This document shows positions 7,191 to 28,894 of a DNA stretch of 32,937 nt, in pieces; the stretch's first letter is position 1; the number at the start of each line of letters is the position of its first letter. The notes beneath the pieces are model-generated. The model saw only the letters and a program-made list of their open reading frames with translations, made no database searches and was not told the origin of the DNA. The translations under genes and the position numbers were made by a program. This stretch comes from Tissierellia bacterium (GTDB taxonomy: Bacteria > Bacillota > Clostridia > Tissierellales > Tepidimicrobiaceae): NCBI GenBank assembly GCA_012728595.1, contig JAAYEU010000106.1:1-32937 (forward strand). Reading direction: 5' to 3'.

Positions 7191-7203
7191 AGAGAGGGAT
7201 TAT

Positions 7204-10538: not shown

Positions 10539-10576
10539 AATAAAGGGTAATCCAACCCCATTTTGGAGTGATAACG

Positions 10577-11287: not shown

Positions 11288-11343
11288 AATCGATAACTGG
11301 TTTACTTTTTATACCGTTCCTAGTGTAGGAGCGGAATTTTTTT
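11265..11343 (+). terminator. Terminator region after the response regulator (two hairpins)
   Basis: AAACCAGT...ACTGGTTT then CCGTTCCTA-gtg-TAGGAGCGG followed by T7. Confidence 0.75.
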
Positions 11344-11429
11344 AAGAGAAAGAAGCTTTTTCTTCTGCTAAAAATTTTTCGTAAAGGTTTAAACAAAAAA
11401 TAATATAATAAGGCTTAAAGGTGATTGTG

Positions 11430-12335
11430 ATGAAGAAGATACCTTTGATAATAGACTGCGATCCTGGCGTTGACGATGCCCTTGCAATTATTCTAGCTAA
11501 TTCTATAGAGGGAATCGATATAAAGGCCATTACCACAGTTTCTGGGAATGCAAGAATCGAATATACCACAAGAAATGCCCTACTAATAGCCGAACTATTG
11601 GATTTAGACTGTATTATAGCCAAAGGGGCAGAAGAACCCTTAGTAAAACCCTTATTAACCGGAACCAATATCCATGGTCATGATGGATTAGGTGGTTGTG
11701 TAAAGCTATTTCCCAATGAGATAAGAAAAAAATTATCTAAAGAAAATGCTGTAACGGTTATGAGAGATATATTAATTAATTCTGATGAGAAAATTTCTAT
11801 TGCAGCAGTAGGACCATTAACCAATATAGCCATGCTATTAAAAGTATATCCAGAGGTAAAGGAGAAAATAGAGCAAATAAGTGTAATGGGTGGAGCTATC
11901 GATAATGGCAATATTACAGCTTGTAGCGAATTTAACTTCTACGCAGACCCAGAAGCAGCAAGCATTGTGTTTAACAGTGGGGTTCCTTTGATAATGGCTG
12001 GCCTTAATCTAACTAATAATGCTACATTAACAGAAGAGGAATTGAAAGAGATGAAGGCCATTAAAACTAGATTAGCCGATATAGCAGTTCAGATGACTAG
12101 TGGCTACATTTCCAAAGATGCTGCAATACACGACCCTTGCGCCATCTTGGCTATTAGCAATCCAGAAATATTTGAATATAAAGACCTATATATCCAAATC
12201 GATACCCGAGATGGTATTACTCGAGGTATGAGCTATGCAGATTATAGGAAGAATTATAAATCAAATTGCAAGGTGTTGACTAAATTGGATGTTGACAAGT
12301 TCAGAAACTTTATGGTAAGAAGCCTAAGGGTATAA
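11430..12335 (+). CDS. Inosine/uridine-preferring nucleoside hydrolase
   Basis: PLIIDCDPGVDDALAIILA; HGHDGLGG; AVGPLTNIAMLL; VMGGAIDNGNITACSEFNFYADPEAA. Confidence 0.95.
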   Translation: MKKIPLIIDCDPGVDDALAIILANSIEGIDIKAITTVSGNARIEYTTRNALLIAELLDLDCIIAKGAEEPLVKPLLTGTNIHGHDGLGGCVKLFPNEIRKKLSKENAVTVMRDILINSDEKISIAAVGPLTNIAMLLKVYPEVKEKIEQISVMGGAIDNGNITACSEFNFYADPEAASIVFNSGVPLIMAGLNLTNNATLTEEELKEMKAIKTRLADIAVQMTSGYISKDAAIHDPCAILAISNPEIFEYKDLYIQIDTRDGITRGMSYADYRKNYKSNCKVLTKLDVDKFRNFMVRSLRV

Positions 12336-12635
12336 GAGATAGGAATTACTCATTGAGAAAATAGTGGAATGCGATTTTAAACCGCTTTTTATGTGGGCTT
12401 TATATTTAGTAGATAATTCTTGTTTTTCTTTATCATGTATAATAGAATAAACATAAACGATATAAAAAGTGTTAACAAACAAGAAGCTTATTAGAATATA
12501 AGGTTTTTTATACATTAGTATTAGATATTAAAGCTAAATAGGATAAGAAGGAAGGCTTTATATGGGGTCATATTAGACTTATACAGGGTTCTATCCTTAT
12601 TGTTTTGATATAGTCTAGTATTGGGAGGGACAAAT

Positions 12636-14126
12636 ATGGATACTAGATTATCTGATTATATGGTATCAGATAAAAGGACGGCTTATAAGGAATATGATAT
12701 GATGCTTATCTGTTTAGAAAGGATTATCCAAAATCTTGATGAGGGAGTAATTTTAACGGATAAAAATGGAAAAATTCTTATCTACAACAAAGCCATGGAA
12801 GAATTGGAGAAGAGGAAGGCTTCCGATATGATTGGAAAATATATATGGGAGGCCTATGAATATTATGACAAGGATAAATCGGAACATATGAGAGTCTTAA
12901 AAAGCGGACAAGCTATAGTCAAAAGATATAAAGCCCATGCTTATAATGACGACAGGCCTGTTTATAAGCTATATAGCACCTTCCCAATAGAAGTTGATGG
13001 AGAGATAATCGGAGTTTATTCGGTAAGTAAAAATGAAACAAGGTTACAGTTTCTCTTATCAGAAATAACTGAGATGAAAAATGAACTATTCAAACAAAAG
13101 GCCCTAAAACCTGACCAGGTCAATTCTAATGGTACAAAATTTACTTTTGCAGATATCATAGGCTCTAGCAAGGTGATGAAAAAACTAATAGAAGAAGCCC
13201 AAGCAGTTGCTTGGTTGGACAATACCATTTTATTAGTAGGGGATACTGGAACGGGAAAGGAAGTTTTTGCTCAAAGCATCCATAACTATGGCAATAGGAG
13301 TTCTGAACCCTTTGTGGCAATAAACTGTGCATCAATTCCAGAAAATCTCCTAGAAAGCACCCTATTTGGAACGGTTAAAGGAGCTTATACCGGAGCTGTG
13401 GATTCACCTGGATTAATTGAAGAGGCAGGCTGTGGTACTTTATTTTTAGACGAGATACACAATATGCCTGTAAATATGCAAGCAAAATTATTAAGGGCTT
13501 TACAGGAAAAGACCGTAAGAAGGATTGGAGGAAGTGAGAATTATCCAGTTAGATGCAGAATAATCAGCGCTGTAAATGAGGATCCGTTTGAATTAATTCA
13601 AAAAGAACAACTAAGGCAGGACCTATATTATAGAATAGCCGGATACTCCTTATATATCCCCCTCCTTATAGAAAGGGAAAACGATATGTTTGAACTAGCC
13701 CAATATTTTATCAAGAAAAACAATCTAGTATTAAACAAAAATGTATCCCATATTACGGATAAGTTAAAAAGGCTTATGGCAAATTACAGTTGGCCAGGAA
13801 ATGTAAGGGAGCTAGAACACTTTGTTGAAAGTATAATGATTAGAACCAACGAGAACGATCGATATTTAAGGGCTAGAAATGCCCCTAAATATTTAATAGA
13901 TATGATGAAGGCCAATCGTGGAAATTATTACGAACTTAAAGATAGTTCAAATTCAACATTGGATGAAAAACTTGACCGTATAGAGAAAAAATTGATCCTA
14001 GAAGCTTTAGATAATAATTTATGGAATGTAACAAGGAGCGCTAAGGAATTAGGAATTACAAGGCAGAGTTTAATATATAGGATGAGAAAACTGGGTATAA
14101 AGAGAAAGAAAAGTTTAGAAGGATAA
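12636..14126 (+). CDS. Sigma54-interacting transcriptional regulator (PAS-AAA+-Fis, RocR/PrdR-like), predicted hut activator
   Basis: PAS domain; GDTGTGKEVFAQSIH; KGAYTGA (GAFTGA variant); WPGNVRELEH; C-terminal Fis-type HTH. RBS GGAGGG upstream of ATG 12636. Confidence 0.92.
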   Translation: MDTRLSDYMVSDKRTAYKEYDMMLICLERIIQNLDEGVILTDKNGKILIYNKAMEELEKRKASDMIGKYIWEAYEYYDKDKSEHMRVLKSGQAIVKRYKAHAYNDDRPVYKLYSTFPIEVDGEIIGVYSVSKNETRLQFLLSEITEMKNELFKQKALKPDQVNSNGTKFTFADIIGSSKVMKKLIEEAQAVAWLDNTILLVGDTGTGKEVFAQSIHNYGNRSSEPFVAINCASIPENLLESTLFGTVKGAYTGAVDSPGLIEEAGCGTLFLDEIHNMPVNMQAKLLRALQEKTVRRIGGSENYPVRCRIISAVNEDPFELIQKEQLRQDLYYRIAGYSLYIPLLIERENDMFELAQYFIKKNNLVLNKNVSHITDKLKRLMANYSWPGNVRELEHFVESIMIRTNENDRYLRARNAPKYLIDMMKANRGNYYELKDSSNSTLDEKLDRIEKKLILEALDNNLWNVTRSAKELGITRQSLIYRMRKLGIKRKKSLEG

Positions 14127-14214
14127 GTGTTTGAAAATAAAACATAGTGCTTGAAAATAAACTGCAAATCAAGCTGTAATTTATATAATATGTTTTATTT
14201 TCAAACACTTTTTT
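14125..14214 (+). promoter_or_regulatory. 22-bp perfect inverted repeat with an extra direct copy of one arm; candidate UAS cluster for hutU and/or terminator
   Basis: AAGTGTTTGAAAATAAAACATA (14125-14146) vs TATGTTTTATTTTCAAACACTT (14189-14210), then T-run; GTGCTTGAAAATAAAC direct copy at 14147-14162. Confidence 0.75.
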
Positions 14215-14278
14215 AACAATTAAATGAATAAGTTGATATTAAATGTGTTAAATATGGGCTTTTCAACTTGCATTAAGC

Positions 14279-14294
14279 TGGCATAGAAATTGCA
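14279..14294 (+). promoter_or_regulatory. Sigma54 (-24/-12) promoter upstream of hutU
   Basis: TGGCATAGAAATTGCA, GG-N10-GC spacing, 63 bp before the hutU ATG. Confidence 0.85.
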
Positions 14295-14356: not shown

Positions 14357-16390
14357 ATGATTGACAATAAAATGATTTCTGAAGCCATGACCATTAAACT
14401 GGATGAAATATTTGATGAATTACCCCCTATGCCTAAATTCCAAGAAGGAATTAGAAGGGCTCCAAAAAGGGAGTTCACTCTATCCAAAAAGGAGACCGAA
14501 ATCGCTTTAAAGAATGCCTTAAGATATGTTCCAGAAAAATGGCATGAAGAATTGGCCCCGGAATTTTTAGATGAACTGTTAACCTATGGTAGAATTTATG
14601 GCTATAGATTTAGACCTGAAGGTAGAATCTATGGAAAACCTATTGATGAATATAAAGGAAAATGCATAGAAGGAAAAGCTTTTCAGGTTATGATAGACAA
14701 CAATCTAGATTTTGAAGTAGCCCTTTATCCATATGAGTTGGTAACCTATGGGGAAACAGGGCAGGTATGCCAAAACTGGATGCAATATCAGCTTATTAAA
14801 CGGTATTTAGAGGAGCTAACTGAAAACCAAACCCTAGTAGTTGCATCAGGGCATCCATTAGGATTATTTAATTCTACACCTAATAGTCCAAGGGTAATAA
14901 TAACTAACGCCTTAATGGTAGGAATGTTTGATGACCAAGACCACTGGAATAAGGCTCAAGCCATGGGAGTAGCCAACTATGGACAGATGACTGCAGGAGG
15001 TTGGATGTACATTGGACCTCAAGGAATCGTCCATGGAACATATAACACCATTCTAAATGCTGGAAGAAAAGAATTAGGAATAAAAGAGGACCTAAGAGGC
15101 CATCTATTTGTAAGCTCAGGTTTAGGTGGTATGAGCGGAGCTCAAGGAAAAGCAACAAAGATAGCTAAAGGGGTTGCCATAATAGCAGAAGTAGACTATT
15201 CTAGAATACAAACTAGACTAGACCAGGGCTGGATAGACGTTTCAGTAGACGATATCGAAAAGGCCTTCAATTTAGCAAAAGAATATATGGATAAAAAGGA
15301 AAGCATAGCAATAGCATACCATGGAAATATAGTGGATTTACTAGAATATGCAGTCAATAACAATGTAAAGATAGACCTACTATCAGACCAGACTTCATGT
15401 CATGCACCCTATGATGGAGGATATTGTCCACAAGGGCTAACTTTCGAAGAAAGAACTGAAATGTTAAATAATAATAAAGAAAAATTCAAGGAATTGGTAG
15501 ATAAATCATTAGTCAAGCATTTTGGATTGATTAAGGAATTGGTAGACAGAGGAACCTATTTCTTCGATTATGGTAACAGCTTCATGAAAGCGGTATTCGA
15601 TGCAGGAGCGAAGGAAATAGCTAAGAACGGAAAAGATGAAAGCGAAGGATTTATATTCCCATCCTATGTAGAAGATATAATGGGACCAATGCTATTCGAT
15701 TATGGTTATGGACCTTTTAGGTGGGTATGCTTAAGTGGCAAAAAAGAAGATTTAATTAAGACTGACAAGGCAGCCATGGAATGCATAGACCCAGAGAGAA
15801 GATTTCAAGATAGGGACAATTGGATATGGATTAGAGATGCAGAGGAAAATAAGCTAGTAGTTGGAACCCAAGCAAGAATACTTTATCAAGATGCATTAGG
15901 AAGACTGAAAATTGCACTAAAATTCAATGAGATGGTTAGAAATGGTGAAATAGGTCCTGTAATGTTGGGAAGAGACCACCATGATACAGGAGGAACCGAT
16001 TCACCCTTTAGGGAGACAGCCAACATCTATGATGGAAGCAATATAATGGCCGATATGGCAACCCACTGTTTTGCAGGTAATGCAGCTAGAGGCATGAGCT
16101 TAGTTGCCCTTCACAATGGTGGAGGAGTAGGAATAGGTAAATCGATAAATGGTGGATTTGGAATGGTATTAGATGGAAGTGAGAGAGTAGATAACATATT
16201 AAAGACTGCTATGCCTTGGGATGTAATGGTTGGTGTTGCAAGAAGGTCCTGGGCAAGAAATGAAAACTCAATAGAAACTGTAATAGAATACAATAAGCAG
16301 TTTAAGGATACAGATCATATAACCATTCCATATATAGCTGATGATGAGCTGGTTAAGAGGTTAGTAGATGAAAAATATGAAAACAGATAA
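14357..16390 (+). CDS. hutU: Urocanate hydratase, long form (677 aa)
   Basis: SSGLGGMSGAQGKA; DQTSCHAPYDGGYCPQGLT; LGRDHHDTGGTDSPFRET; ALHNGGGVGIGKSINGGFG. Confidence 0.96.
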   Translation: MIDNKMISEAMTIKLDEIFDELPPMPKFQEGIRRAPKREFTLSKKETEIALKNALRYVPEKWHEELAPEFLDELLTYGRIYGYRFRPEGRIYGKPIDEYKGKCIEGKAFQVMIDNNLDFEVALYPYELVTYGETGQVCQNWMQYQLIKRYLEELTENQTLVVASGHPLGLFNSTPNSPRVIITNALMVGMFDDQDHWNKAQAMGVANYGQMTAGGWMYIGPQGIVHGTYNTILNAGRKELGIKEDLRGHLFVSSGLGGMSGAQGKATKIAKGVAIIAEVDYSRIQTRLDQGWIDVSVDDIEKAFNLAKEYMDKKESIAIAYHGNIVDLLEYAVNNNVKIDLLSDQTSCHAPYDGGYCPQGLTFEERTEMLNNNKEKFKELVDKSLVKHFGLIKELVDRGTYFFDYGNSFMKAVFDAGAKEIAKNGKDESEGFIFPSYVEDIMGPMLFDYGYGPFRWVCLSGKKEDLIKTDKAAMECIDPERRFQDRDNWIWIRDAEENKLVVGTQARILYQDALGRLKIALKFNEMVRNGEIGPVMLGRDHHDTGGTDSPFRETANIYDGSNIMADMATHCFAGNAARGMSLVALHNGGGVGIGKSINGGFGMVLDGSERVDNILKTAMPWDVMVGVARRSWARNENSIETVIEYNKQFKDTDHITIPYIADDELVKRLVDEKYENR

Positions 16391-16405
16391 GGAAAGGGGA
16401 TATTG

Positions 16406-17302
16406 ATGGCAAGATTAGTTCAATGTGTACCAAATTTTAGTGAAGGTAGAAACAAGGAAGTAGTAGAAAAAATAGTAGATGAAATTAGGAAAGTAGAAGG
16501 AGTAAAATTATTGGATTACTCAATGGATAAAGATCATAATAGAAGCGTAGTAACCTTTGTAGGAGAACCAGAAAAGGTTGTGGAAGCAGCCTTCAATTCA
16601 ACTAAAGTAGCAGCTGAACTAATAGATATGTCAAAACATACTGGAGGGCATCCTAGAATGGGAGCAACAGATGTTATACCTTTAATACCAATATCTGATG
16701 TAACGGTAGAAGAATGTATAGAGTATTCCAAGCAATTGGGTAAGAGAATAGGGGAAAAACTGAATATACCAGTATTCTTATACGAACAATCTGCCACAGC
16801 AAAACATAGGGAAAACCTTGCAGACATAAGACGGGGCCAATACGAAGGAATGAAGGAGAAATTAAAAGAAGAAGAGTGGAAACCAGATTATGGTCCAGCA
16901 GAATTAAATGTCAAAGCAGGCGTTACAGCAGTAGGAACAAGACCTCCACTAATTGCCTTCAATGTAAACTTAGGAACAGATAATGTAGAAATAGCTAAAA
17001 AAATAGCTAAAGTGGTAAGGGCTAGGACTGGAGGATTCACCTATTGTAAAGCTATTGGCCTTGAGATTAAGGAAAGAGGTATAGTCCAAGTATCTATGAA
17101 CATGGTAGATTACACTAAGACCTCCCTATTTAGAGTATTCGATACAATAGAAAGAGAAGCTAGGCGATATGGAGTAAATGTTATAGGAAGTGAAATAATA
17201 GGGCTTGTGCCTATGCAGGCCTTGGTAGATGTAGCAGAATACTATTTAAGATTAGAAGATTTCAGCTCGGACCAGATACTTGAAAAGAAGATATTCGAAT
17301 AG
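16406..17302 (+). CDS. ftcD: Glutamate formimidoyltransferase (formiminotransferase domain only)
   Basis: ARLVQCVPNFSEGRNKEVVEKI; KHTGGHPRMGATDVIPLIP; VTAVGTRPPLIAFNVNL. Confidence 0.95.
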   Translation: MARLVQCVPNFSEGRNKEVVEKIVDEIRKVEGVKLLDYSMDKDHNRSVVTFVGEPEKVVEAAFNSTKVAAELIDMSKHTGGHPRMGATDVIPLIPISDVTVEECIEYSKQLGKRIGEKLNIPVFLYEQSATAKHRENLADIRRGQYEGMKEKLKEEEWKPDYGPAELNVKAGVTAVGTRPPLIAFNVNLGTDNVEIAKKIAKVVRARTGGFTYCKAIGLEIKERGIVQVSMNMVDYTKTSLFRVFDTIEREARRYGVNVIGSEIIGLVPMQALVDVAEYYLRLEDFSSDQILEKKIFE

Positions 17303-17310
17303 GTGATAAT

Positions 17311-18570
17311 ATGAAAGCCGATATTGTTATAAAAAATATAGATAAACTGTATACCCTAAAAGGGGCAAACAGAGCAAGGGTAAAAGAGGAGATGAAAGAG
17401 GTAGGCCTAATAGAAAACGGAACTCTAGCAATAGAGAAAGACCGGATAATTTATGTGGGAGAAGGAGACTTACCAGCTGATATAGAAATAGACCATAACA
17501 CCCTTGTTATAGATGGAAGAGGAAAGACTGCAACTCCGGGACTGGTGGACTCCCACACCCACCTGGTCCACGGGGGATCCCGTGAGAATGAACTAGCTAT
17601 GAAACTAAAAGGAGTAAAATACTTAGATATACTTGAAGCAGGTGGAGGCATCCATAGCACAGTTAATGCCACTAAGAATGCTAGCTTTGATGAACTTTAT
17701 AATAAAGCCAAAAAGAGCCTAGATATTATGCTATCCTTTGGAGTTACAACTGTAGAGGCTAAAAGTGGTTATGGATTAGACGATTTTGAAACCGAAATAA
17801 AGCAATTGGAAGTAGCTAAAAAATTAAACGAAGACCACCCTGTGGATATAGTTTCCACTTTTATGGGTGCCCACGCTATCCCGCCTAAATATAAAGATGA
17901 ACCAGAAAAGTTTATCCAGATGATAATAAATGAGATGATTCCACAGGTAGCGGAAAGAAAACTAGCCAAGTTCAACGATGTCTTTTGTGAAAAAGGAGTA
18001 TTCTCAATAGAAGAATCTAAAGAAATTTTAGAAGCAGGATTGAAACATGGTTTACTGCCTAAAATCCATGCAGATGAAATTGAACCCTTAGGGGGGGCAG
18101 AATTAGCAGCAGAAGTAGGCTGTATTTCAGCCGATCACTTGGTAGCTGCTAGTGAAAAAGGGATAGAGATGATGGCAGAAAAAGGAGTAGTGGCTAATTT
18201 ACTACCAGCAACTTCTTTTAATCTTCAATCTGGCAAGTATGCTAAGGCAAGAACTATGATAGAAAAAGGGGTACCGGTAGCCTTATCCACAGACTATAAC
18301 CCAGGAAGCTGCCCTACAGAAAATTTACAGCTTGTAATGAGTTTTGCCTCATTAATATTTAGAATGACCCCGGAAGAGGTATTAACGGCTGTAACTATAA
18401 ATGGAGCAGCTGGATTAGATCTGGCTGATGAAATCGGATCCATTGAAGTAGGTAAAAAAGCTGATATAGTACTATTCGATGCTCCAAATTTAGAGTATAT
18501 AATCTACCACTTTGGAATCAATCACACCGCTAAGGTTATAAAAGCAGGAAAGCTGGCTTTTGAAAATTAG
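17311..18570 (+). CDS. hutI: Imidazolonepropionase
   Basis: TPGLVDSHTHLVHGGSRENEL; EAKSGYGLD; THADEIEPLGGAELA-like block; STDYNPGSCPTENLQLVM. Confidence 0.97.
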   Translation: MKADIVIKNIDKLYTLKGANRARVKEEMKEVGLIENGTLAIEKDRIIYVGEGDLPADIEIDHNTLVIDGRGKTATPGLVDSHTHLVHGGSRENELAMKLKGVKYLDILEAGGGIHSTVNATKNASFDELYNKAKKSLDIMLSFGVTTVEAKSGYGLDDFETEIKQLEVAKKLNEDHPVDIVSTFMGAHAIPPKYKDEPEKFIQMIINEMIPQVAERKLAKFNDVFCEKGVFSIEESKEILEAGLKHGLLPKIHADEIEPLGGAELAAEVGCISADHLVAASEKGIEMMAEKGVVANLLPATSFNLQSGKYAKARTMIEKGVPVALSTDYNPGSCPTENLQLVMSFASLIFRMTPEEVLTAVTINGAAGLDLADEIGSIEVGKKADIVLFDAPNLEYIIYHFGINHTAKVIKAGKLAFEN

Positions 18571-18752: not shown

Positions 18753-18768
18753 TGGTATATAATTTGCA
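18753..18768 (+). promoter_or_regulatory. Sigma54 (-24/-12) promoter upstream of hutH
   Basis: TGGTATATAATTTGCA, GG-N10-GC spacing, 83 bp before the ATG. Confidence 0.8.
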
Positions 18769-18850: not shown

Positions 18851-20380
18851 ATGAGCAAAGTTATTATTACTGGAAATTCTTTGACCTTAGAAGACCTTGT
18901 AGCCGTTTGCAGAGAATTTAAGGAAGTTGAACTTTCAGAAGAAGCCAAGAAAAATATTATTAAATCTAGGCAAACTGTCGATGAGTTTGTGGAAAATGAA
19001 GAGGTAGTATATGGTATTACTACTGGTTTTGGAAAATTTAGTGATGTTACCATATCAAAGGAAGAAACTAAACTTCTTCAAGAAAATTTAATCGTATCTC
19101 ATGCCGTAGGAGCAGGAGAACCTTTCAACACAGAAATAGTTAGAGGTATCATGCTTTTAAGAATAAATAGCTTGGCAAAAGGCTATTCTGGTGTTAGAAT
19201 AGAAACAATACAGACCCTTATAGATATGCTTAATAAAAGAGTTCATCCTATTATCCCAGAAAAGGGTTCACTAGGTTCAAGTGGCGATTTAGCACCTTTA
19301 TCCCATATGGTATTACCCATGCTGGGATTAGGAATGGCAGAATATGAAGGCAAGATAATGCCTGGCAAGGAAGCAATGGATAAAGCAGGCATAGATATTA
19401 TAGAATTGACATCAAAGGAAGGTCTTGCCCTTATAAATGGAACCCAGGCCATGACCTCAGTTGGAGCCCTAACTGTATATGATGCTTTAAATTTATTGAA
19501 GGTTGCCGATATAGCTGCTGCATTAAGCTTTGAAGCAAATAATGGAGTAGTTAATGCCCTTGATAATAGGATCCATGAATTAAGACCTCATAAAGGACAG
19601 ATTGATACAGCTAAGATATTATTGCAACTATTAAAGGATAGCAAAATGACTACAAAACAGGGTGAAATTCGGGTTCAAGATGCCTATGCTTTAAGGTGTG
19701 TACCCCAAGTTCATGGTGCAAGCAAGGATGCTATCAACTATATTAAAGAAAAAGTAGAAATAGAGATAAATTCCGTTACGGATAACCCATTGGTATTTGG
19801 TGAAACTAAGGAGGGCATTTCAGGAGGTAACTTCCATGGTCAACCTATGGCATTGGTATTTGACTTTTTAGGAATAGCACTAGCTGAAATAGCCAACATT
19901 TCCGAGAGGCGTCTAGAAAGGTTAGTAAATCCTGCCTTAAGCGGTCTTCCAGCATTTTTGGTGGAAAAGGGAGGATTGAATTCAGGATTTATGATAGTTC
20001 AATATTCTGCAGCAGCCCTTGTTTCTGAAAATAAAGTATTAGCTCACCCAGCAAGTGTGGATTCCATCCCTTCATCAGCTAATCAGGAAGACCATGTCTC
20101 CATGGGAACAATTGCTGCAAGGAAAGCTAGGGAGATAATGAAAAATGTACGAAGAGTACTGGCTATGGAAATAATGGCAGCTTGTCAGGCCATAGATTTG
20201 AGAGGTAATAAAGGTTTAGGAATAGGTACGAAACCAGCATATGATTTGGTAAGACAACATGTGGAAAAACTAGAAGATGACAGACCCCTTTATGAAGATA
20301 TCAATAGGTGTGAGGACATTATAACAGATGAAAGTATAATCAAGGTCGTAGAAGATGCAGCAGGCCAAATAATATTTTAA
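18851..20380 (+). CDS. hutH: Histidine ammonia-lyase
   Basis: YGITTGFGKF; GSLGSSGDLAPLSHM (Ala-Ser-Gly MIO-type motif region); SSANQEDHVSMGTIAARK. Confidence 0.97.
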   Translation: MSKVIITGNSLTLEDLVAVCREFKEVELSEEAKKNIIKSRQTVDEFVENEEVVYGITTGFGKFSDVTISKEETKLLQENLIVSHAVGAGEPFNTEIVRGIMLLRINSLAKGYSGVRIETIQTLIDMLNKRVHPIIPEKGSLGSSGDLAPLSHMVLPMLGLGMAEYEGKIMPGKEAMDKAGIDIIELTSKEGLALINGTQAMTSVGALTVYDALNLLKVADIAAALSFEANNGVVNALDNRIHELRPHKGQIDTAKILLQLLKDSKMTTKQGEIRVQDAYALRCVPQVHGASKDAINYIKEKVEIEINSVTDNPLVFGETKEGISGGNFHGQPMALVFDFLGIALAEIANISERRLERLVNPALSGLPAFLVEKGGLNSGFMIVQYSAAALVSENKVLAHPASVDSIPSSANQEDHVSMGTIAARKAREIMKNVRRVLAMEIMAACQAIDLRGNKGLGIGTKPAYDLVRQHVEKLEDDRPLYEDINRCEDIITDESIIKVVEDAAGQIIF

Positions 20381-20413: not shown

Positions 20414-20504
20414 ATAATTTATATAGAGAAGGGAGGGGTTATAAGATTTAGTTTTAATATCTACTAAATTCACTATGTAAAATAAGTAGAGTGAGGTGAA
20501 TTGT

Positions 20505-21803
20505 ATGCCTGTTGTTGTATCGGTCCTTGTGATGACAGTTTTATGTCTATTAAAGTTAAATGTCATCATAGCTTTAATTATTTCTGCCCTTGTTGCCGGT
20601 GTTCTTTCAGGTATAAGCATGACTGAAACCATGTCACTACTAATTGCTGGAATGGGCGGAAATTCTGAAACTGCTCTTAGCTACATTCTACTAGGAGCTT
20701 TGGCTGTGGCCATTAATAGAAGCGGCATTGCCAATAGACTAGTAGTAAAGTTAACCAAAAGCTTAAAAGATAGAAGAGTACTGTTCGTATTGATAATAGC
20801 TTTTATTTCATGCTTTTCACAAAACTTAATTCCAGTTCATATTGCATTCATACCCATTTTAATCCCACCACTTCTTGGAGTAATGAATAGGTTAAAGATT
20901 GATAGGCGAGCTGTTGCATGTGCTTTAACCTTTGGATTAAAGGCTCCTTATGTAATGCTACCAGTCGGATTCGGTTTAATTTTCCATAATATAATAAGAG
21001 ACTCCCTAATTGATAATGGTATGACAGTAGCTACTCAAATGGTTTGGAAGTCAATGTTATTACCTGGGATAGGCATGATTATAGGCTTATTACTAGCTGT
21101 TTTTATAAGCTATAGGAAAGCAAGAGAGTATGAAGATATTACTGTAAGCGAAACAGCAGCAACCGGTGAATTAGAAAATTCAAATATGAGCAAGGAAGAA
21201 GTAGGAGTGTTGATAGGTGCTATAATAGCTTTTGCAGTCCAATTATTATCAGGTTCTTTGGCTTTAGGAATATTAACTGCCTTGTTAGTGATGCTCTTAT
21301 TTGGTTCCTTTAAGTTCAAAGAAATTGATAGCCTAATGGATGGCGGTATTGGAATGATGGGCTTTATTGCTTTTGTAATGCTGGTTGCATCTGGATATGG
21401 TAATGTATTAAGAGAAACGGGAGCTATAGAAGCTTTAGTAAATAGTTCAGTAGAATTAATAGGTGGCAGCAAGTTATTGGGTGCAATTTTGATGCTATTA
21501 ATAGGACTTTTAGTAACGATGGGTATAGGTACTTCCTTTGGTACAGTTCCTATTATTGCCACATTCTATGTACCACTATGTATACAATTAGGATTTAGCC
21601 CTGCAGCAACTATAGCCCTTGTAGGTGTTGCTGGTGCTCTAGGAGATGCAGGCTCACCTGCCTCTGATAGTACATTAGGACCTACCTCTGGTCTAAATGC
21701 AGATGGGCAACATGATCATATATGGGATACCTGTGTTCCAACCTTTATCCACTTTAATATACCTTTGATAATATTTGGAGTATTAGCAGCAATGATCTTG
21801 TAA
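20505..21803 (+). CDS. NhaC/YuiF-type amino acid (probably histidine) transporter
   Basis: ~12 hydrophobic segments; QNLIPVHIAFIPILIPPLL; GDAGSPASDSTLGPTSGLNADGQHDHIWDTCVPTF; directly follows hutH. ATG 20505 preferred over GTG 20496. Confidence 0.8.
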   Translation: MPVVVSVLVMTVLCLLKLNVIIALIISALVAGVLSGISMTETMSLLIAGMGGNSETALSYILLGALAVAINRSGIANRLVVKLTKSLKDRRVLFVLIIAFISCFSQNLIPVHIAFIPILIPPLLGVMNRLKIDRRAVACALTFGLKAPYVMLPVGFGLIFHNIIRDSLIDNGMTVATQMVWKSMLLPGIGMIIGLLLAVFISYRKAREYEDITVSETAATGELENSNMSKEEVGVLIGAIIAFAVQLLSGSLALGILTALLVMLLFGSFKFKEIDSLMDGGIGMMGFIAFVMLVASGYGNVLRETGAIEALVNSSVELIGGSKLLGAILMLLIGLLVTMGIGTSFGTVPIIATFYVPLCIQLGFSPAATIALVGVAGALGDAGSPASDSTLGPTSGLNADGQHDHIWDTCVPTFIHFNIPLIIFGVLAAMIL

Positions 21804-21815
21804 ATTGATTTTTAC

Positions 21816-21862
21816 ATCAAACACCCTAGATATAAGGAGCTCCTTATATCTAGGTGTTTGAT
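21816..21862. terminator. 47-nt near-perfect palindrome between convergent genes; probable bidirectional terminator
   Basis: ATCAAACACCCTAGATATAAGGAG / CTCCTTATATCTAGGTGTTTGAT with one bulged C. Confidence 0.65.
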
Positions 21863-21864
21863 AA

Positions 21865-22686
21865 TTATAAATACACTATTCCTTCTGATACTATTTCAAC
21901 TAATCCATTAAGTTTAATAGAATCTATATCGTTAGATTTCAAATAAGCAGAAACCTCTAGCTTTCCACCTGGCTGTTGGATATTTTTCGATATAGATGTT
22001 TTGTTCTCATAAGCCAATGCTGCCCCCAATGAAGCAGTTCCAGAGGCGCAGCTTCTTTCCCAATAAAGGCTATCGGTCCCTTTTACATATACTAGTGGAG
22101 TTAAGAAATTGTTTTTTCTATCATAATACATAATTCCAAAGGCATGGTATTCTTCCTTATCCATTTTCTTCTTAACTATTTTGAAAAATTCATCTTTATT
22201 TTTTACCTCATGGATATCTACTATGAAATGGGTTATACCTGGTAAGTTTACCCTTATAGAATTTACCATATTATCATCTTCTTTGAAACAGCATTCTTTA
22301 ACCGATATGGGTAGGGGCATGTCGATTTCCGAAAAGAAGACATTTTCCTTTTCTGTAGGAGTAACCTTACATGTAATTAAGCCTTCTATACCTGATGTTT
22401 TTAAGGTAACTTCATATTTATTACCCAACTTTCTTAGGTTTGGGTAGCGACTGTAGACCATAAAAGCCGCTAAAGATCTGGAAGCATTTCCACAAAACTC
22501 TCCACCCATCATCTGAAGCTTTATAAAACCTTCTTCCTTCTCTATAAATCCTACCTGTTCTCCATGGATGTTATTATAATTCATAAGCTTATTGGAAATT
22601 TCCATATGAAACTTTCTTGGAACTGGATCTAAGACAAATATGGTCATGTTTTCTACAGGATTTACCTTTACATATCTAACCTTCAT
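21865..22686 (-). CDS. DapF-fold amino-acid racemase/epimerase, CntK/HisR (histidine racemase)-like
   Basis: KVNPVENMTIFV; GEQVGFIEKEE; GGEFCGNASRSLAAF; LYWERSCASGTASLGAAL; IQQPGGKLEV: two-Cys DapF-fold layout, closer by recollection to CntK than to DapF. Confidence 0.8.
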   Translation of the reverse strand: MKVRYVKVNPVENMTIFVLDPVPRKFHMEISNKLMNYNNIHGEQVGFIEKEEGFIKLQMMGGEFCGNASRSLAAFMVYSRYPNLRKLGNKYEVTLKTSGIEGLITCKVTPTEKENVFFSEIDMPLPISVKECCFKEDDNMVNSIRVNLPGITHFIVDIHEVKNKDEFFKIVKKKMDKEEYHAFGIMYYDRKNNFLTPLVYVKGTDSLYWERSCASGTASLGAALAYENKTSISKNIQQPGGKLEVSAYLKSNDIDSIKLNGLVEIVSEGIVYL

Positions 22687-22723: not shown

Positions 22724-22751
22724 ATTATAGCACTACTTTCTGAATTATCAA
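22724..22751 (-). promoter_or_regulatory. SigmaA-type promoter for the racemase-like gene
   Basis: On minus strand TTGATA-N16-TATAAT, about 40 bp before the ATG. Confidence 0.6.
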
Positions 22752-23362: not shown

Positions 23363-23406
23363 TAAAATAAAGCCATAGGATTAATTAATCCTATGGCTTT
23401 ATTTTA
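23363..23406. terminator. 44-bp perfect palindrome; bidirectional terminator between cobO and the dipeptidase gene
   Basis: TAAAATAAAGCCATAGGATTAATTAATCCTATGGCTTTATTTTA is identical to its own reverse complement. Confidence 0.8.
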
Positions 23407-24388
23407 GAGTTTTCTTTAATATTCTCACCCAATTTTCTCCAGTGACTTTTTTTACATTTTCAGCGGAATGGCCTCTTTCCAATAGTAGTTTAATTAAATC
23501 TGGTATTTGTTCGGCGCTTTCCAGCCCCTTAACTCCGAAGTCTCCCAGATACATGTTAAAGTCAAAACCCAAGGCTACATGATCATATCCAACAAGTTCC
23601 ACCATATATTCTATATGTTTTACTACATCATGGATTGTTTCAGTTTCATCGTCTCTAGTTCTAACTTTGCCAGGATTTTCTTCATCTACTTTTGAAAAAT
23701 ATGAATTAATCCCAACTACCCCGCCGCTATGAGCTATTGCCTTTATTTGCTCGTCGGTTAAGTTTCTTGGATGGTTAAATAGAGCCCTAGCATTGGAATG
23801 GGATGCAATGGTAAGCTTTTTATTAGCTTTAATAATATCCCAAAATCCTTCCTCATTTAAATGGGATACATCTACTATTATCCCTAACTCATTCATCCTT
23901 TTAATTGCCATAAATCCCAGCTTGGTAAGGCCACCAGTTTTTTCGTCATTTCCGTGAGCAAAAGGATTTTTTAGATTCCAGGTTAGCATTCCGGCTCTTA
24001 TGCCGAATCTATAATATAAATCCAATAGCTCTAAATGACCATATAAGGGTTCGAAACCTTCCAAGGAAAGTACCATTCCAAGTTTTTTATTTTTTAAAAC
24101 ATAATCTAAATCTTCTAGGGTTTTGATTATTACGACATCTTCATTTTCTTCGGCGATTCTTAGAATTTTTTCAAATTCCAATAGCCCTTCAATTAGAGAG
24201 TTTTCCTTAGTACCTTTAGTAAATATATTGGCAAATACTATATTTACTCCCGAATTTTTTAACTGGTAATAATGGTTATTTAAGAAGGGATTTTCTTCCC
24301 CTTTAGCTTCTCTTAAATACACATCTCTGGGTATGTCTGTATGTCCATCGATTATTATAAAGTCCTTTAAGATATCATTTCGATTCAT
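23399..24388 (-). CDS. Membrane-dipeptidase family (M19) metallopeptidase
   Basis: IIDGHTDIPRD; LSLEGFEPL; DVSHLNEEGF; ASHSNARAL; LGFDFNM metal ligands. Confidence 0.93.
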   Translation of the reverse strand: MNRNDILKDFIIIDGHTDIPRDVYLREAKGEENPFLNNHYYQLKNSGVNIVFANIFTKGTKENSLIEGLLEFEKILRIAEENEDVVIIKTLEDLDYVLKNKKLGMVLSLEGFEPLYGHLELLDLYYRFGIRAGMLTWNLKNPFAHGNDEKTGGLTKLGFMAIKRMNELGIIVDVSHLNEEGFWDIIKANKKLTIASHSNARALFNHPRNLTDEQIKAIAHSGGVVGINSYFSKVDEENPGKVRTRDDETETIHDVVKHIEYMVELVGYDHVALGFDFNMYLGDFGVKGLESAEQIPDLIKLLLERGHSAENVKKVTGENWVRILKKTLK

Positions 24389-24417
24389 AGCACACCTCTT
24401 TTGTCTATTTTAGTTAT

Positions 24418-25836
24418 TTAGAATGGTCCGTAATTGATTATAACAGCAATAACCATGAAGACGGCACCCATTAATGTCCATATTAAGAATAGCTTTCCGT
24501 AATATTTAAGCCATTTGTCATAGGATATTTTAGCTATTGAAAGAGAGGCCATCAAGGTAGATGCAGTTGGGGTAAAGGTATTTGAGAAACCATCACCAAA
24601 GTGGAATGCTAGTACTGCAGTTTGTCTAGTAAGGCCTAATATATCTGCTAATGGTACCATAATGGGCATAGTTGTTGCAGCTTGACCGCTTCCGGATGGA
24701 ATGACAAAGTTAATTAGGCTTTGCACTATAAACATTCCAACAGCAGATAAGGTTTTAGGCAATCCACTAATCACGCTTGCTAAGCCATATATGATGGAAT
24801 CTAATATTATTCCGTCTTGTAATACTATCAGAATTGTTCTTGCTATTCCTACAACCAAGGCTCCAAATATAATACCCCTAGCCCCATTTATGAACTCCTG
24901 AGCCATTTGATTTGGATTAATTCTTCCTATAGCACCACTTATTAACCCCATTCCTAAAAATACTGCAGCAATTTCATTTATATACCAGCCAAACTCATAA
25001 ACTCCATATACAATTATTGCAAGTCCAGCAGCCAATGTTAAAAACACTAGATAATGGGAAGGCGATAATGTTTTTTCTTCAGTTAAATCTACAGTTTTGT
25101 TTTTTCTTTCCTCTAACTCTACATCCGCTATAAGGCTTAATTCGGGTCTATCCTTAATCTTTTTTGCATATCTCATAACATAATAAACGGATACGCTAAG
25201 AAATACTATCCAGATTATTATTCTTAAGCCTATGCCTGAAAACAATGGTAATTCTGCTATTCCTTGAGCTATTCCTACTGTAAAAGGATTCATGATTCCT
25301 GAATTAAATCCTACTGCACCACCTAGAGTTACAAGAGACATTCCTACTATAGCATCATAGCCTAAGGCCCTTGCTAAAGATATGGCTACAGGAATGAATA
25401 CTATGTTTTCTTCTGCAAATCCTAAAAAAGCTCCAGTTAATGAGAATATGAACATAAAGATGGGGATTAATAGTTGCTCTTTTCCTCTTAACAGACTAGC
25501 AACTTTATAGATTCCTGCTTCGATGGCGCCAGTAGACGTAATAATTTGGAATGAACCCGCTACTATAAATATGAAAAAGGTTATTTGGGCTGCAGCCATC
25601 ATTCCCCTTGGAACGGCTGTCAATACCTCAAATGGGTTTACTGGATTTCCTTCTACTTTTGTAAAGGAATTGGGATCTACTACAGTTCTACCTGTATTAG
25701 GGTCTTCAATTCTTGCGTATTCCCCTGCGGGTACTATATAGGTTAAGAGTGCTGCAATAATGATAATGCAGGATATTAAAACATAAGTGTGAGGGATTTT
25801 AAAAGTCCTATTAGTTACCCTTGTCTTATCAACCAT
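24418..25836 (-). CDS. YfcC-family transporter
   Basis: PHTYVLISCIIIIAALLTYIVPAGEY; many TM segments; PSGSGQAATTMPIMVPL; GDGFSNTFTPTA. Confidence 0.88.
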   Translation of the reverse strand: MVDKTRVTNRTFKIPHTYVLISCIIIIAALLTYIVPAGEYARIEDPNTGRTVVDPNSFTKVEGNPVNPFEVLTAVPRGMMAAAQITFFIFIVAGSFQIITSTGAIEAGIYKVASLLRGKEQLLIPIFMFIFSLTGAFLGFAEENIVFIPVAISLARALGYDAIVGMSLVTLGGAVGFNSGIMNPFTVGIAQGIAELPLFSGIGLRIIIWIVFLSVSVYYVMRYAKKIKDRPELSLIADVELEERKNKTVDLTEEKTLSPSHYLVFLTLAAGLAIIVYGVYEFGWYINEIAAVFLGMGLISGAIGRINPNQMAQEFINGARGIIFGALVVGIARTILIVLQDGIILDSIIYGLASVISGLPKTLSAVGMFIVQSLINFVIPSGSGQAATTMPIMVPLADILGLTRQTAVLAFHFGDGFSNTFTPTASTLMASLSIAKISYDKWLKYYGKLFLIWTLMGAVFMVIAVIINYGPF

Positions 25837-25950
25837 CTTAAAACCTCCCTTTAATTTTTAGTAAATATTGATTATAAGACCTGTATCCAATATCCCTACC
25901 CCTATAATCACCTCCTGAAATGATTAAAATTTTTTTTATAAGTATGATGA

Positions 25951-25966
25951 TGCAATTAGTGTTCCA
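25951..25966 (-). promoter_or_regulatory. Sigma54 (-24/-12) promoter upstream of yfcC-dipeptidase
   Basis: Reverse complement TGGAACACTAATTGCA, GG-N10-GC spacing. Confidence 0.7.
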
Positions 25967-26248
25967 GTTTACTAAAAAACCAAATTTTTATAAAATTTTA
26001 TGGCTGTGAGCTTTTGAATTTAAGGATTTGAATTATATGAAAAATATGAAAATTAAAATAAATGATTTTTTATCTTAAAAAGTATTTTAATATTTGTAAA
26101 AAAAGTATACATTATAAAATTTCAAAAAGGAATAAAACTGTCCATTTATTTTACATATAGAATTAATATAAATTTTCAGCAAATTGCAGGCTTTTAATCC
26201 CTATGGTAAAATATCATTGATAAAGTTTGCTATATGGAGAGGAGAAGG

Positions 26249-27865
26249 CCTATGTATGATTTAATTATAAAAAATGGTGAAATCATAGATGGTTCAGGTA
26301 AAGGGGCATATATGGCTGATATAGGCATTAAAGATGGTTACATAAAAGAGATAGCAACAAGCATGGATTCAGAAGCCTTAAAGGTTATAGATGCAAAAGG
26401 CTATGTTGTAAGTCCTGGCTTTATAGATATAGACTCCCACTCTGATTTTTCCCTTTATGCTAATCCCAGAGCTGAAAGTAAAATATACCAAGGTATAACC
26501 ACAGAATTAGTAGGACAAGGAGGGAGGACTTTAGGCCCCATTAATAGGGAACGATTAAAGGATTTAAAACAGTATACAAGCTCCTATGTTCTAAATAAGA
26601 ATGAACCTAACTATTGGGGATGGAATAGCAATATGGAATTCATTAATTTGTTAGAAAAAAAGGGCATTGCTGTAAATATAGCTGCCTTAGTAGGTTATGG
26701 AAGTATTCGAGTTGCCGTAATGGGATTTGAAAAGAGAATTCCAACTAAATACGAAATGGATAAGATGATATTTCTACTTGAAGAGGAAATGAATAAGGGA
26801 GCCTTTGGATTATCCCTTGGATTAGATAATAGTCCAGATTCCCTAGCAACCATTGAAGAATTGGCAGAAATGGCTAAAGTGGTAAAAAAGCATGATGGGA
26901 TACTTGCAGTACATATGAGAGAAGAGGGAAATTATCTATTTGAATCCATAAACGAGGCATTGGATATAACTAGAAGGTCTGGAGTTAAGCTTCAGATATC
27001 CCATCTAAAAGCTGCTCATCCTCAAAATTGGGGGAAGGTGAAAGAGGCAATAGAAATTATTAATAAAGCAAGGCATGAAGGTTTGGATGTACATTACGAT
27101 GTATATCCATATACTGCTTATGAAAGCGTTTTAGCCGATGTTCTACCTACTTGGATTAGGGAGCTAAGTCCAGAAAATATGGTGAATTATTTAAAGAAGG
27201 ATGTAATACGAAAGAAAATAATTACGGAAATGATAGATCCAAATAGCGACTGGGGAAATCCTATGTTAGGTTCTTCTTGGAATATGATAAGAATAGTTTC
27301 CATGAAAAGAGCAGAAAACAAGAAATATGAAGGAATGAATATGGAAGAAATTGCTGAGGATATGGATCTAACTCCTCAAGAAGCTGCAATAAGGCTGTTA
27401 ATAGCTGAAGAAGGAGTAATAAAAATTATATTCTTTGCAATGTTAGAATCAGATTTAATAGAAGTGATGAAGCAGTCTATGGCGATCTTTTGCACTGATG
27501 GTTTAGCAGTTTCACCTTATGGCGATTATAAGGATATAAAGGTCCATCCAAGATATTATGGTGCTTTTCCAAGGATATTAGGTAGATATGTAAGGGAGAA
27601 AAAAATATTAGCTTTAGAAGATGCCATACATAAAATGACATTATTACCTGCCATGAAGATGAACTTAAGGAATAGAGGTCTCTTGGATATAGGGTATAAA
27701 GCGGATATTACTATATTTGACAAAGATACTATTATAGACAAATCCACTTTTGATAATCCACACCAATACTCTGATGGAATAAAATACGTTATAGTTAATG
27801 GAGAAATAGTACTAGAAGGGGAAACTCACACTGGTAAATTACCTGGTGAGATAATTAGGATGTAA
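26249..27865 (+). CDS. D-aminoacylase / N-acyl-D-amino-acid amidohydrolase family protein (atypical metal site)
   Basis: MYDLIIKNGEIIDGSGKGAYMADIGIKDG; SPGFIDIDSHSDFSL; LQISHLKAAHPQNWGK; HYDVYPYTA; CTDGLAVSPYG; HPRYYGAFPRILGRYVRE. Start may be 26249-26252 ATG or upstream ATG at 26234. Confidence 0.85.
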   Translation, partial: PMYDLIIKNGEIIDGSGKGAYMADIGIKDGYIKEIATSMDSEALKVIDAKGYVVSPGFIDIDSHSDFSLYANPRAESKIYQGITTELVGQGGRTLGPINRERLKDLKQYTSSYVLNKNEPNYWGWNSNMEFINLLEKKGIAVNIAALVGYGSIRVAVMGFEKRIPTKYEMDKMIFLLEEEMNKGAFGLSLGLDNSPDSLATIEELAEMAKVVKKHDGILAVHMREEGNYLFESINEALDITRRSGVKLQISHLKAAHPQNWGKVKEAIEIINKARHEGLDVHYDVYPYTAYESVLADVLPTWIRELSPENMVNYLKKDVIRKKIITEMIDPNSDWGNPMLGSSWNMIRIVSMKRAENKKYEGMNMEEIAEDMDLTPQEAAIRLLIAEEGVIKIIFFAMLESDLIEVMKQSMAIFCTDGLAVSPYGDYKDIKVHPRYYGAFPRILGRYVREKKILALEDAIHKMTLLPAMKMNLRNRGLLDIGYKADITIFDKDTIIDKSTFDNPHQYSDGIKYVIVNGEIVLEGETHTGKLPGEIIRM

Positions 27866-27904: not shown

Positions 27905-28894
27905 ATGGGAAAAAGAAATGAAGATATGGTCAACTATAATATAGATTATAATGAAAATGAAGGTATGGTCTATAGCAGCCAAAAGATGAAAGCTATAGTA
28001 TCTATGGTTGAAAATATTTCTAAAACCGATGCAACAGTGCTACTTATGGGGGAGACAGGGGTTGGTAAAGAGGTAATAGCTAAGCTTATACATAGAAAAA
28101 GCCATAGAAGAGATAAGAGGTTTGTTGTAATAAACTGTGCTGCAATCCCTGAAAACTTAATTGAAAGTGAGCTCTTTGGCCACGAAAAAGGTGCTTTTAC
28201 AGGAGCAAGTTATAGGAAAATAGGCAAATTTGAACAGGCCCAAGGAGGTACAGTTTTTCTAGATGAAATAGGAGAATTACCATTAAAAATGCAGGTTAAG
28301 TTCTTGAGGGTGTTGCAAGAAAGACAGTTTGAAAGAATAGGATCTTTAGACAGTATCGATTTAGATGTAAGGGTTATTGTAGCAACCAATAAGGATTTAC
28401 TGGAGGAATTGGAAAAGGGGAACTTCAGAGAAGACCTATACTACAGGGTAAACGTAATAAAGATAGAAATTCCTCCTCTAAGGGAAAGAAAAGAGGATAT
28501 TATAGCCTTATCCAATGTTTTTCTTAGGGAATTTGCCAACTATTATAATAAGAGTTTAAAAAAGATAGATTTAGAAACCATGCACATACTTCTAAATCAC
28601 CAATGGAAGGGGAACGTAAGGGAGCTTAAAAATGTAATTGAAAGGTCGGTGATATTAGCTAAGAAGAATGAGCAGATTCTAACTATCAATCATCTGCCGA
28701 TAGAGGTGAAAATAGATAATAGCTTCCCAGAGATGAGGGAAAGAACAAAGATAAGTTTAAAGGAATATGAGAAATTGCTTATTTTATATACCCTTTATGA
28801 TGTCAAAGGTAATAAGAGCAGGGCAGCAGAAATATTAGGGATTAGAAGGCAGACCTTATATAATAAGATGAGGGAATATGGCATAGATATATAA
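27905..28894 (+). CDS. Sigma54-dependent AAA+ activator lacking an N-terminal sensory domain (PspF-like architecture)
   Basis: MGETGVGKEVIAKLIH; EKGAFTGA; GGTVFLDEIGELPL; WKGNVRELKNVIERS; C-terminal Fis-type HTH. Confidence 0.92.
   Translation: MGKRNEDMVNYNIDYNENEGMVYSSQKMKAIVSMVENISKTDATVLLMGETGVGKEVIAKLIHRKSHRRDKRFVVINCAAIPENLIESELFGHEKGAFTGASYRKIGKFEQAQGGTVFLDEIGELPLKMQVKFLRVLQERQFERIGSLDSIDLDVRVIVATNKDLLEELEKGNFREDLYYRVNVIKIEIPPLRERKEDIIALSNVFLREFANYYNKSLKKIDLETMHILLNHQWKGNVRELKNVIERSVILAKKNEQILTINHLPIEVKIDNSFPEMRERTKISLKEYEKLLILYTLYDVKGNKSRAAEILGIRRQTLYNKMREYGIDI

What the first reader, a model, noticed from the sequence alone, without database searches (positions are those of the whole stretch)
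21865..22686. CntK/HisR-like histidine racemase in a histidine-degradation locus: possible D-histidine catabolic branch
Seen: a DapF-fold protein with both Cys-containing motifs (GGEFCGNASR, SCASGTASLG) sits convergent to hutH and its transporter. The NMTI, EQVGFIE, EFCGNA, W-E-x-SC-x-SGTAS and QPGG blocks match my recollection of Staphylococcus CntK (histidine racemase) better than DapF. No lysine-pathway or staphylopine (cntL/cntM-like) genes are in the window. Inference: it converts D-His to L-His, which HutH can use. Together with the nearby D-aminoacylase-like and dipeptidase genes this would make the region a D-amino-acid salvage locus rather than a plain hut operon.
Basis: partly seen in the sequence, partly recalled or inferred. 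Interest (0 to 1): 0.8.

Follow-up and report, generated by a model that had tools for sequence, protein, structure and literature searches.

The report
Histidine racemase in hut operons
A gene that flips histidine between its mirror-image forms sits beside the histidine-breakdown genes here and inside histidine-breakdown operons of bacteria from at least three phyla, which suggests a previously undescribed way for bacteria to eat D-histidine.

Summary
The ORF at 21865-22686 is real. It is on the minus strand, 273 aa, with both catalytic Cys motifs, and converges on hutH and a transporter. By profile, PDB sequence, predicted fold (pLDDT 94.6) and tree it belongs to the cofactor-independent histidine racemases (HisR, then CntK) and not to DapF. 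The organism has a separate true dapF. It scores below both curated NCBIfam cut-offs (HisR, CntK), so it is a new subgroup. The comparative evidence goes beyond the finding. Relatives lie in co-directional operons with hutH and the same NhaC/YuiF-type transporter, a type shown to import histidine in S. aureus, in Clostridium, Tindallia, Anoxynatronum, Treponema and Desulfovibrio. A divergent (~33% identical) subfamily sits independently beside hutH. In the window's order all 54 genomes with the gene also have hutH (155 of 249 overall; p=1e-13), and none has the staphylopine dehydrogenase. Best reading: D-His is imported, racemised to L-His and degraded by HutH. The wider "D-amino-acid salvage locus" with D-aminoacylase and dipeptidase is not supported: in the sister genome those genes are fragments or undetected. 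No paper in the searched open-access library describes a hut-linked histidine racemase. No enzyme assay exists for this subgroup.

The parts
21865..22686 (-). HisR-type cofactor-independent histidine racemase (273 aa; Cys65 in GGEFCGN, Cys213 in WERSCASG)
22724..22751 (-). sigma-70-like promoter with extended -10 (TTGATA-16-TATAAT, 11 of 12), 38 bp before the hisR start; suggests its own transcript in this genome
   Evidence: consensus match only
21825..21854 (.). bidirectional terminator-like hairpin (13 pairs) between the convergent transporter and racemase genes
20496..21803 (+). NhaC/YuiF-type transporter (PF13726+PF03553), probable histidine importer (HisT-like)
   Evidence: family context
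18851..20380 (+). HutH histidine ammonia-lyase
   Evidence: TIGR01225 702.9 bits (cut-off 539)
17311..18570 (+). HutI imidazolonepropionase
   Evidence: 472.7 bits (cut-off 298)
16403..17302 (+). FtcD glutamate formimidoyltransferase
   Evidence: 481.9 bits (cut-off 221)
14357..16390 (+). HutU urocanate hydratase
   Evidence: 453.6 bits (cut-off 375)
12621..14126 (+). PAS / sigma-54 activator, candidate hut regulator
   Evidence: conserved upstream of hutU in sister G213 (78%)
14279..14294 (+). -24/-12-like site upstream of hutU (TGGCATAGAAATTGCA)
   Evidence: 1 mismatch
18753..18768 (+). -24/-12-like site upstream of hutH (TGGTATATAATTTGCA)
   Evidence: 2 mismatches

Best explanation
The gene encodes a cofactor-independent, two-cysteine histidine racemase of the HisR/CntK type that opens the hut (histidine degradation) pathway to D-histidine. 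D-His, or a D/L mixture, enters through the adjacent NhaC/YuiF-type transporter. Cys65 and Cys213 act as the acid/base pair that inverts the alpha-carbon. HutH then removes L-His irreversibly as urocanate, which pulls the reversible racemisation from D to L, and HutU, HutI and FtcD carry the carbon to glutamate. Shown here: family identity, catalytic and ligand residues, fold, repeated operon linkage and co-occurrence with hutH. Inferred: the catalysed reaction in this subgroup, the D->L direction in vivo, and D-His as a transported substrate.
For: Identity: HisR 216.6 bits, CntK 171.3, DapF 20. Best PDB sequence hits are HisR and CntK. The AlphaFold model (pLDDT 94.6) matches HisR (E 6.5e-26) and CntK (1.8e-24) far better than DapF (6e-15). 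The tree puts all 98 HisR-like sequences, with CntK and F. nucleatum HisR, apart from DapF with full support, and this gene in a 29-row supported set with F. nucleatum HisR. Residues: the HisR positions proposed to bind His, Asn18/Glu65/Glu206, and Glu49 proposed for CntK (PMC11602996), are N13/E63/E210/E43 here and almost invariant over 98 members; two DapF Asn positions are Gly in all members. Pathway: hisR-transporter-hutH or hutH-transporter-hisR(-hutU...) operons, gaps mostly 20-170 bp, in Clostridium (C. tetanomorphum, C. liquoris, C. pascui and others), Tindallia, Anoxynatronum, Anaerophilus, Spirochaetota and Desulfovibrio. A ~33%-identical subfamily also adjoins hutH (67-bp gap in L146; L147), although the HutHs there are 78-79% identical to the window's. 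Hut-linked racemases as one clade are rejected (AU p 4e-54). All 54 hisR-like genomes in the order carry hutH (Fisher 1e-13; by genus 17 of 17, p 5e-4); class 14 of 16 vs 55 of 391. Linkage within 12 kb in 9 genomes (p 2e-7). The transporter type imports histidine in S. aureus (PMC10817146).
Against: No biochemistry exists for this subgroup, and it scores below both curated equivalog cut-offs. Residue 211 is Arg here but Asn in HisR and CntK, so side-chain recognition could differ. In this genome the racemase is not in the hut transcript: it is convergent, with its own promoter-like site and no -24/-12 site. Some relatives live in hutH-less genomes (23 of 49 tested unlinked ones), so the family is not used only for hut. 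In F. nucleatum, added D-His did not rescue the hisR mutant's lag (PMC11602996), though that is not a test of D-His catabolism. The S. aureus transporter assay used L-His only.
Confidence: 0.77

Rival explanations
1. The protein epimerises a different compound of the hut pathway or of the cell (for example formimino-glutamate or imidazolonepropionate, both chiral) and not free histidine.
For: It sits with hut genes but below the HisR/CntK equivalog cut-offs. Residue 211 is Arg, next to the side-chain ligand Glu210, where HisR and CntK have Asn.
Against: The proposed imidazole and amino ligands of HisR/CntK are almost invariant across the family. The divergent subfamily member L019 beside hutH has the YENSC motif, with Asn at residue 211 as in characterised F. 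nucleatum HisR. About 20 relatives are coupled to amino-acid ABC importers, and all 14 of those genomes tested lack hutH, so hut intermediates cannot be the general substrate.
Confidence: 0.1
2. The main benefit is removal of toxic D-His (detoxification), with catabolism incidental; the same reaction in the same direction.
For: D-His is reported to inhibit growth of Streptococcus mutans (PMC12269051, title and abstract). Here the racemase has its own promoter-like site.
Against: Repeated operon coupling to the whole catabolic pathway and to an importer fits use as a nutrient better than defence.
Confidence: 0.08
3. The enzyme makes D-His from L-His for a product (opine metallophore, peptide, export), as CntK does.
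For: Characterised CntK works in this direction; racemases are reversible.
Against: No staphylopine dehydrogenase above cut-off in 249 genomes of the order and no D-His-using gene identified in the window. HutH competes for L-His in the same operons.
Confidence: 0.05
4. It is a diaminopimelate epimerase or a generic DapF paralogue.
For: Same fold and two-cysteine mechanism; weak TIGR00652 hit (20 bits).
Against: A true dapF (308 bits) exists elsewhere in the genome. Tree, fold and PDB ranks all separate it from DapF. Two Asn positions conserved in DapF are Gly in all 98 members, and the family lacks the DapF SDG insertion.
Confidence: 0.01

Closest known systems
HisR, histidine racemase of Fusobacterium nucleatum (PDB 9CR1/9CR6; PMC11602996; NCBIfam NF052224)
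   Same: Fold, both Cys motifs, proposed His ligands; closest solved structure; same supported tree set. A Fusobacterium genome with a close relative of HisR (F. gastrosuis, L138) also has hutH.
   Different: About 34% identity; below the NF052224 cut-off. F. nucleatum hisR lies beside V-ATPase and folate genes with unknown role; this one lies with hut genes.
CntK, histidine racemase of staphylopine biosynthesis (PDB 6JIS/6L4L; NF033599)
   Same: Fold, motifs, invariant Glu43/Glu63/Glu210 positions.
   Different: About 27-28% identity; CntK makes D-His for a metallophore with CntL/CntM, and staphylopine dehydrogenase is absent here and throughout the order.
DapF, diaminopimelate epimerase (TIGR00652)
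   Same: Fold and two-cysteine racemase mechanism.
   Different: Separate clade, missing DapF Asn positions and insertion; the organism has its own dapF.
hut (histidine utilisation) operon with YuiF/HisT-type histidine transporter
   Same: HutH, HutU, HutI, FtcD present; NhaC-type transporter of the class shown to import L-His in S. aureus (PMC10817146).
   Different: A racemase has been added, which would extend the pathway to D-His; not described in the papers found.

Membership tests
Cofactor-independent histidine racemase (HisR/CntK) | Two catalytic Cys at the N-ends of helices in GGEFCGN and W/YE.SC.SGT motifs | tested here: met
   Cys65 and Cys213; Cys aligned in 98/98 and 97/98 members (the remaining row has a gap there); helices start at 66 and 214 in the model
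Cofactor-independent histidine racemase (HisR/CntK) | Proposed substrate ligands Asn18, Glu49, Glu65, Glu206 (HisR numbering) | tested here: met
   N13, E43, E63, E210
Cofactor-independent histidine racemase (HisR/CntK) | Fold closer to HisR/CntK than to other DapF-fold enzymes | tested here: met
   Foldseek ranks 1-9 are all HisR/CntK, E 6.5e-26 to 5.8e-22; DapF 6e-15
HisR-Fuso equivalog NF052224 | Score over the curated cut-off (400 bits) | tested here: not met
   216.6 bits; so not filed as this equivalog
CntK equivalog NF033599 | Score over the curated cut-off (300 bits) and company of cntL/cntM | tested here: not met
   171.3 bits; PF10100 absent in the order
Cofactor-independent histidine racemase (HisR/CntK) | Interconverts L- and D-histidine | not testable with these tools
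   needs purified enzyme
DapF (TIGR00652) | Score over cut-off 114.65, position within the DapF clade, DapF residues | tested here: not met
   20 bits; outside DapF; two DapF-conserved Asn positions are Gly in all 98 members, no SDG insertion
hut operon / histidine degradation module | Gene repeatedly co-localised with hutH and other hut genes beyond close kin | tested here: met
   26 of 88 loci examined carry hutH near the racemase, 25 the same transporter family; several separate places on the tree
hut operon / histidine degradation module | Co-transcribed or co-regulated with hut genes in the window organism | tested here: not met
   convergent, own sigma-70-like promoter, no sigma-54-like site; co-directional operons exist only in relatives

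The most novel reading that the evidence does not exclude
Bacteria of several phyla possess a D-histidine branch of the hut pathway: a dedicated importer plus a cofactor-independent racemase (recruited to hut from at least two distinct subfamilies) that feeds D-His to HutH. A sister clade in gut Clostridia without hutH couples the same racemase to an amino-acid ABC importer, so importer plus racemase may be a general D-His salvage unit.
Probability: 0.6. Interest if true: 0.75.

Novelty: new variant of a known kind. Interest (0 to 1): 0.64.

Why it matters
Only two cofactor-independent histidine racemases have been characterised, and the role of the Fusobacterium one is stated as unclear by its discoverers (PMC11602996). 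HutH acts on L-His, so D-His would be a dead end. The operons found here give the family a testable job, D-His catabolism and salvage, and name tractable organisms such as C. tetanomorphum. They also suggest that environmental D-His (from aged protein, metallophores or D-amino-acid-producing neighbours) is a nutrient worth dedicated genes.

Tried and rejected
Rejected: DapF identity; staphylopine-type role (PF10100 search of 249 genomes); a D-amino-acid salvage locus including D-aminoacylase and dipeptidase (decayed or undetected in the sister genome); a single clade of hut-linked racemases (AU test); a sigma-54 promoter shared between hut and hisR (none found); a link to B12-dependent glutamate mutase in this organism via the neighbouring cobA (mutE absent from the own genome). 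Glu65 as a HisR-versus-DapF discriminator was dropped because the clostridial DapFs examined also carry Glu there. Literature searches for D-histidine with hut, hutH or urocanate found no earlier report of the linkage, but subscription journals and preprints are not covered.

Full report
OBSERVATION. The ORF at 21865-22686 is on the minus strand, 273 aa, intact. It carries GGEFCGNASR (Cys65) and WERSCASGTAS (Cys213). It converges on hutH (18851-20380) and an NhaC/YuiF-type transporter (20496-21803) across a 30-bp bidirectional terminator-like hairpin at 21825-21854, and has its own sigma-70-like promoter site at 22751-22724. Upstream of hutH are hutU, ftcD and hutI, each above its curated cut-off, and a PAS/sigma-54 activator. 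Sites resembling -24/-12 promoters precede hutU and hutH but not the racemase gene.

IDENTITY. NCBIfam gives HisR 216.6 bits, CntK 171.3, DapF 20. The first two are well below the curated cut-offs of 400 and 300, so the protein is a relative of those equivalogs and not a formal member. PDB sequence hits are HisR (E 2e-36) and CntK (E 2e-26). An AlphaFold model from a 41-member alignment is confident (pLDDT 94.6, pTM 0.91), and its nine best PDB matches are all HisR or CntK structures, followed at a distance by DapF. A 107-row tree separates all HisR-like sequences from DapF with full support and places this protein in a supported 29-row set with F. nucleatum HisR (CntK and the own DapF are long branches, so their exact places are unsure). 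The residues proposed to hold histidine in HisR/CntK (PMC11602996) are N13, E43, E63 and E210 and are almost invariant over 98 members; two Asn positions conserved in DapF are Gly in every member. Residue 211 is Arg in this clade, Asn in HisR and CntK, and variable among members linked to hut. The organism has a true dapF elsewhere (308.5 bits).

CONTEXT ACROSS GENOMES. A scan of the species-representative genome collection gave 440 relatives; the best 80 were fetched with up to 10-kb flanks. HutH (26 loci) and this transporter family (25 loci) are the two gene families most often found beside the racemase in 88 loci examined, followed by hutU (20). In Clostridium (C. liquoris, C. tetanomorphum, C. 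mobile, C. rectalis, C. pascui, C. peptidivorans) the order is hisR-transporter-hutH, co-directional with gaps of 36-148 bp. In Anaerophilus, Anoxynatronum, Tindallia, Desulfovibrio, a 'Deltaproteobacteria' genome, Treponema and another spirochaete it is hutH-transporter-hisR (one short Tindallia contig starts at the transporter), often followed by hutU, ftcD or hutI, with gaps mostly of 20-170 bp. C. thailandense and Clostridium sp. OS1-26 have hisR-ftcD-hutU-hutI-hutH without the transporter. In Treponema L100 the operon adjoins glutamate mutase and methylaspartase genes, that is, the fermentation of the glutamate formed. In the window's own family orientation varies but linkage persists.

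INDEPENDENT RECRUITMENT. Two genomes of another family in the order (L146, L147) carry a racemase only about 32% identical to this one, beside hutH and an NhaC-type transporter, while their HutHs are 78-79% identical to the window's. The three genes therefore did not travel together; a different subfamily occupies the same place. A tree in which all hut-linked racemases form one clade is rejected (AU p 4e-54), although loss of linkage can also produce that pattern.

CO-OCCURRENCE. In 249 genomes of the order, all 54 with a HisR-like gene have hutH, against 155 overall (Fisher p 1e-13; by genus 17 of 17 against 62 of 92, p 5e-4). In a class-wide sample it is 14 of 16 against 55 of 391 (p 2e-11; outside the own order p 4e-6). 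Relatedness inflates the genome-level figures. Nine of the 54 have hutH within 12 kb (binomial p 2e-7; five genera of 17, p 5e-6). Staphylopine dehydrogenase is absent above cut-off in all 249.

RELATIVES WITHOUT HUT. Of 49 genomes with unlinked relatives, 26 have hutH elsewhere. In a large gut-Clostridia clade the racemase instead follows an amino-acid ABC importer (SBP_bac_3, permease, ATPase), usually within about 100 bp, in 20 loci; all 14 of those genomes that were tested lack hutH. An importer is thus the shared partner with or without hut, which favours salvage of an external D-amino acid over production of one. This is inference.

MECHANISM. D-His enters through the transporter. The transporter type is the main L-histidine importer of S. 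aureus (SAUSA300_0846, annotated NhaC-type and YuiF-type; PMC10817146); that the window protein belongs to the same subtype rests on its Pfam domains and my recollection of YuiF. The two Cys invert the alpha-carbon without cofactor. HutH is L-specific (established knowledge; lyases of this kind are reported to serve in making optically pure D-His, PMC11432326) and drains L-His. F. nucleatum, which has hisR, depletes D-His as well as L-His from medium (Ramezani 1999, cited in PMC11602996), which is consistent.

LIMITS. No member of this subgroup has been assayed. In the window itself the gene is convergent and apparently separately transcribed. The D-aminoacylase, dipeptidase and YfcC genes to the right are not part of a conserved unit: in the sister genome the aminoacylase and YfcC are fragments and the dipeptidase is not detected. 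The name HisR is also used for an unrelated TrpR-family regulator. The literature library lacks subscription papers and preprints, so novelty is relative to it.

VERDICT. A new subgroup of a known enzyme kind in a pathway where none of the searched literature places it. Enzyme identity is likely (about 0.85); the D-His-to-hut role is probable (about 0.77).

Noticed in passing
window 6159-7190 (+): selD carries an in-frame TGA (6198-6200...AKTSGUAAKIGP...), so selenophosphate synthetase is probably itself a selenoprotein; selA and selB follow directly. Mechanical ORF calling misses its N-terminus.
   Followed up: partly
L101-L136 (20 loci, e.g. L102:2066-4290): In gut Clostridia the racemase gene directly follows a SBP_bac_3/permease/ATPase amino-acid ABC importer; all 14 of these genomes that were tested lack hutH. 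Substrate unknown; candidate D-His salvage unit.
   Followed up: partly
L100:2312-6919 and 7074-14243: In a Treponema genome the hut+racemase operon lies next to glutamate mutase (B12-binding subunit, MutE) and methylaspartate ammonia-lyase genes, a likely route from histidine through glutamate.
   Followed up: partly
window 23399-27865; L032:8063-8891: D-aminoacylase-like and YfcC genes, intact in the window, are reduced to fragments in the sister genome, and the M19 dipeptidase is not detected there, while cobA and hisR are kept: recent decay.
   Followed up: yes
window 25951-25966 (-): A -24/-12-like site (1 mismatch) upstream of yfcC and dipeptidase, with a sensor-less sigma-54 activator at 27905-28894 nearby: possible second sigma-54 regulon.
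   Followed up: no
L065-L067, L069, L072-L074, L086, L087, L089: A ~1000-aa BTAD/AAA/TPR regulator family is found near these clostridial hut+racemase operons; candidate hut regulator.
   Followed up: no
L078: A record titled Lutibacter sp. B2 (Bacteroidota) carries a clostridial-looking hut+racemase operon; the record may be misnamed.
   Followed up: no
L064, L068, L070 and L075, L080, L095: Close relatives (about 50-59% identity) in another family of the order sit by trmL/HAD-phosphatase or ThrE-like exporter genes instead of hut genes, although hutH is elsewhere in the genomes tested.
   Followed up: partly
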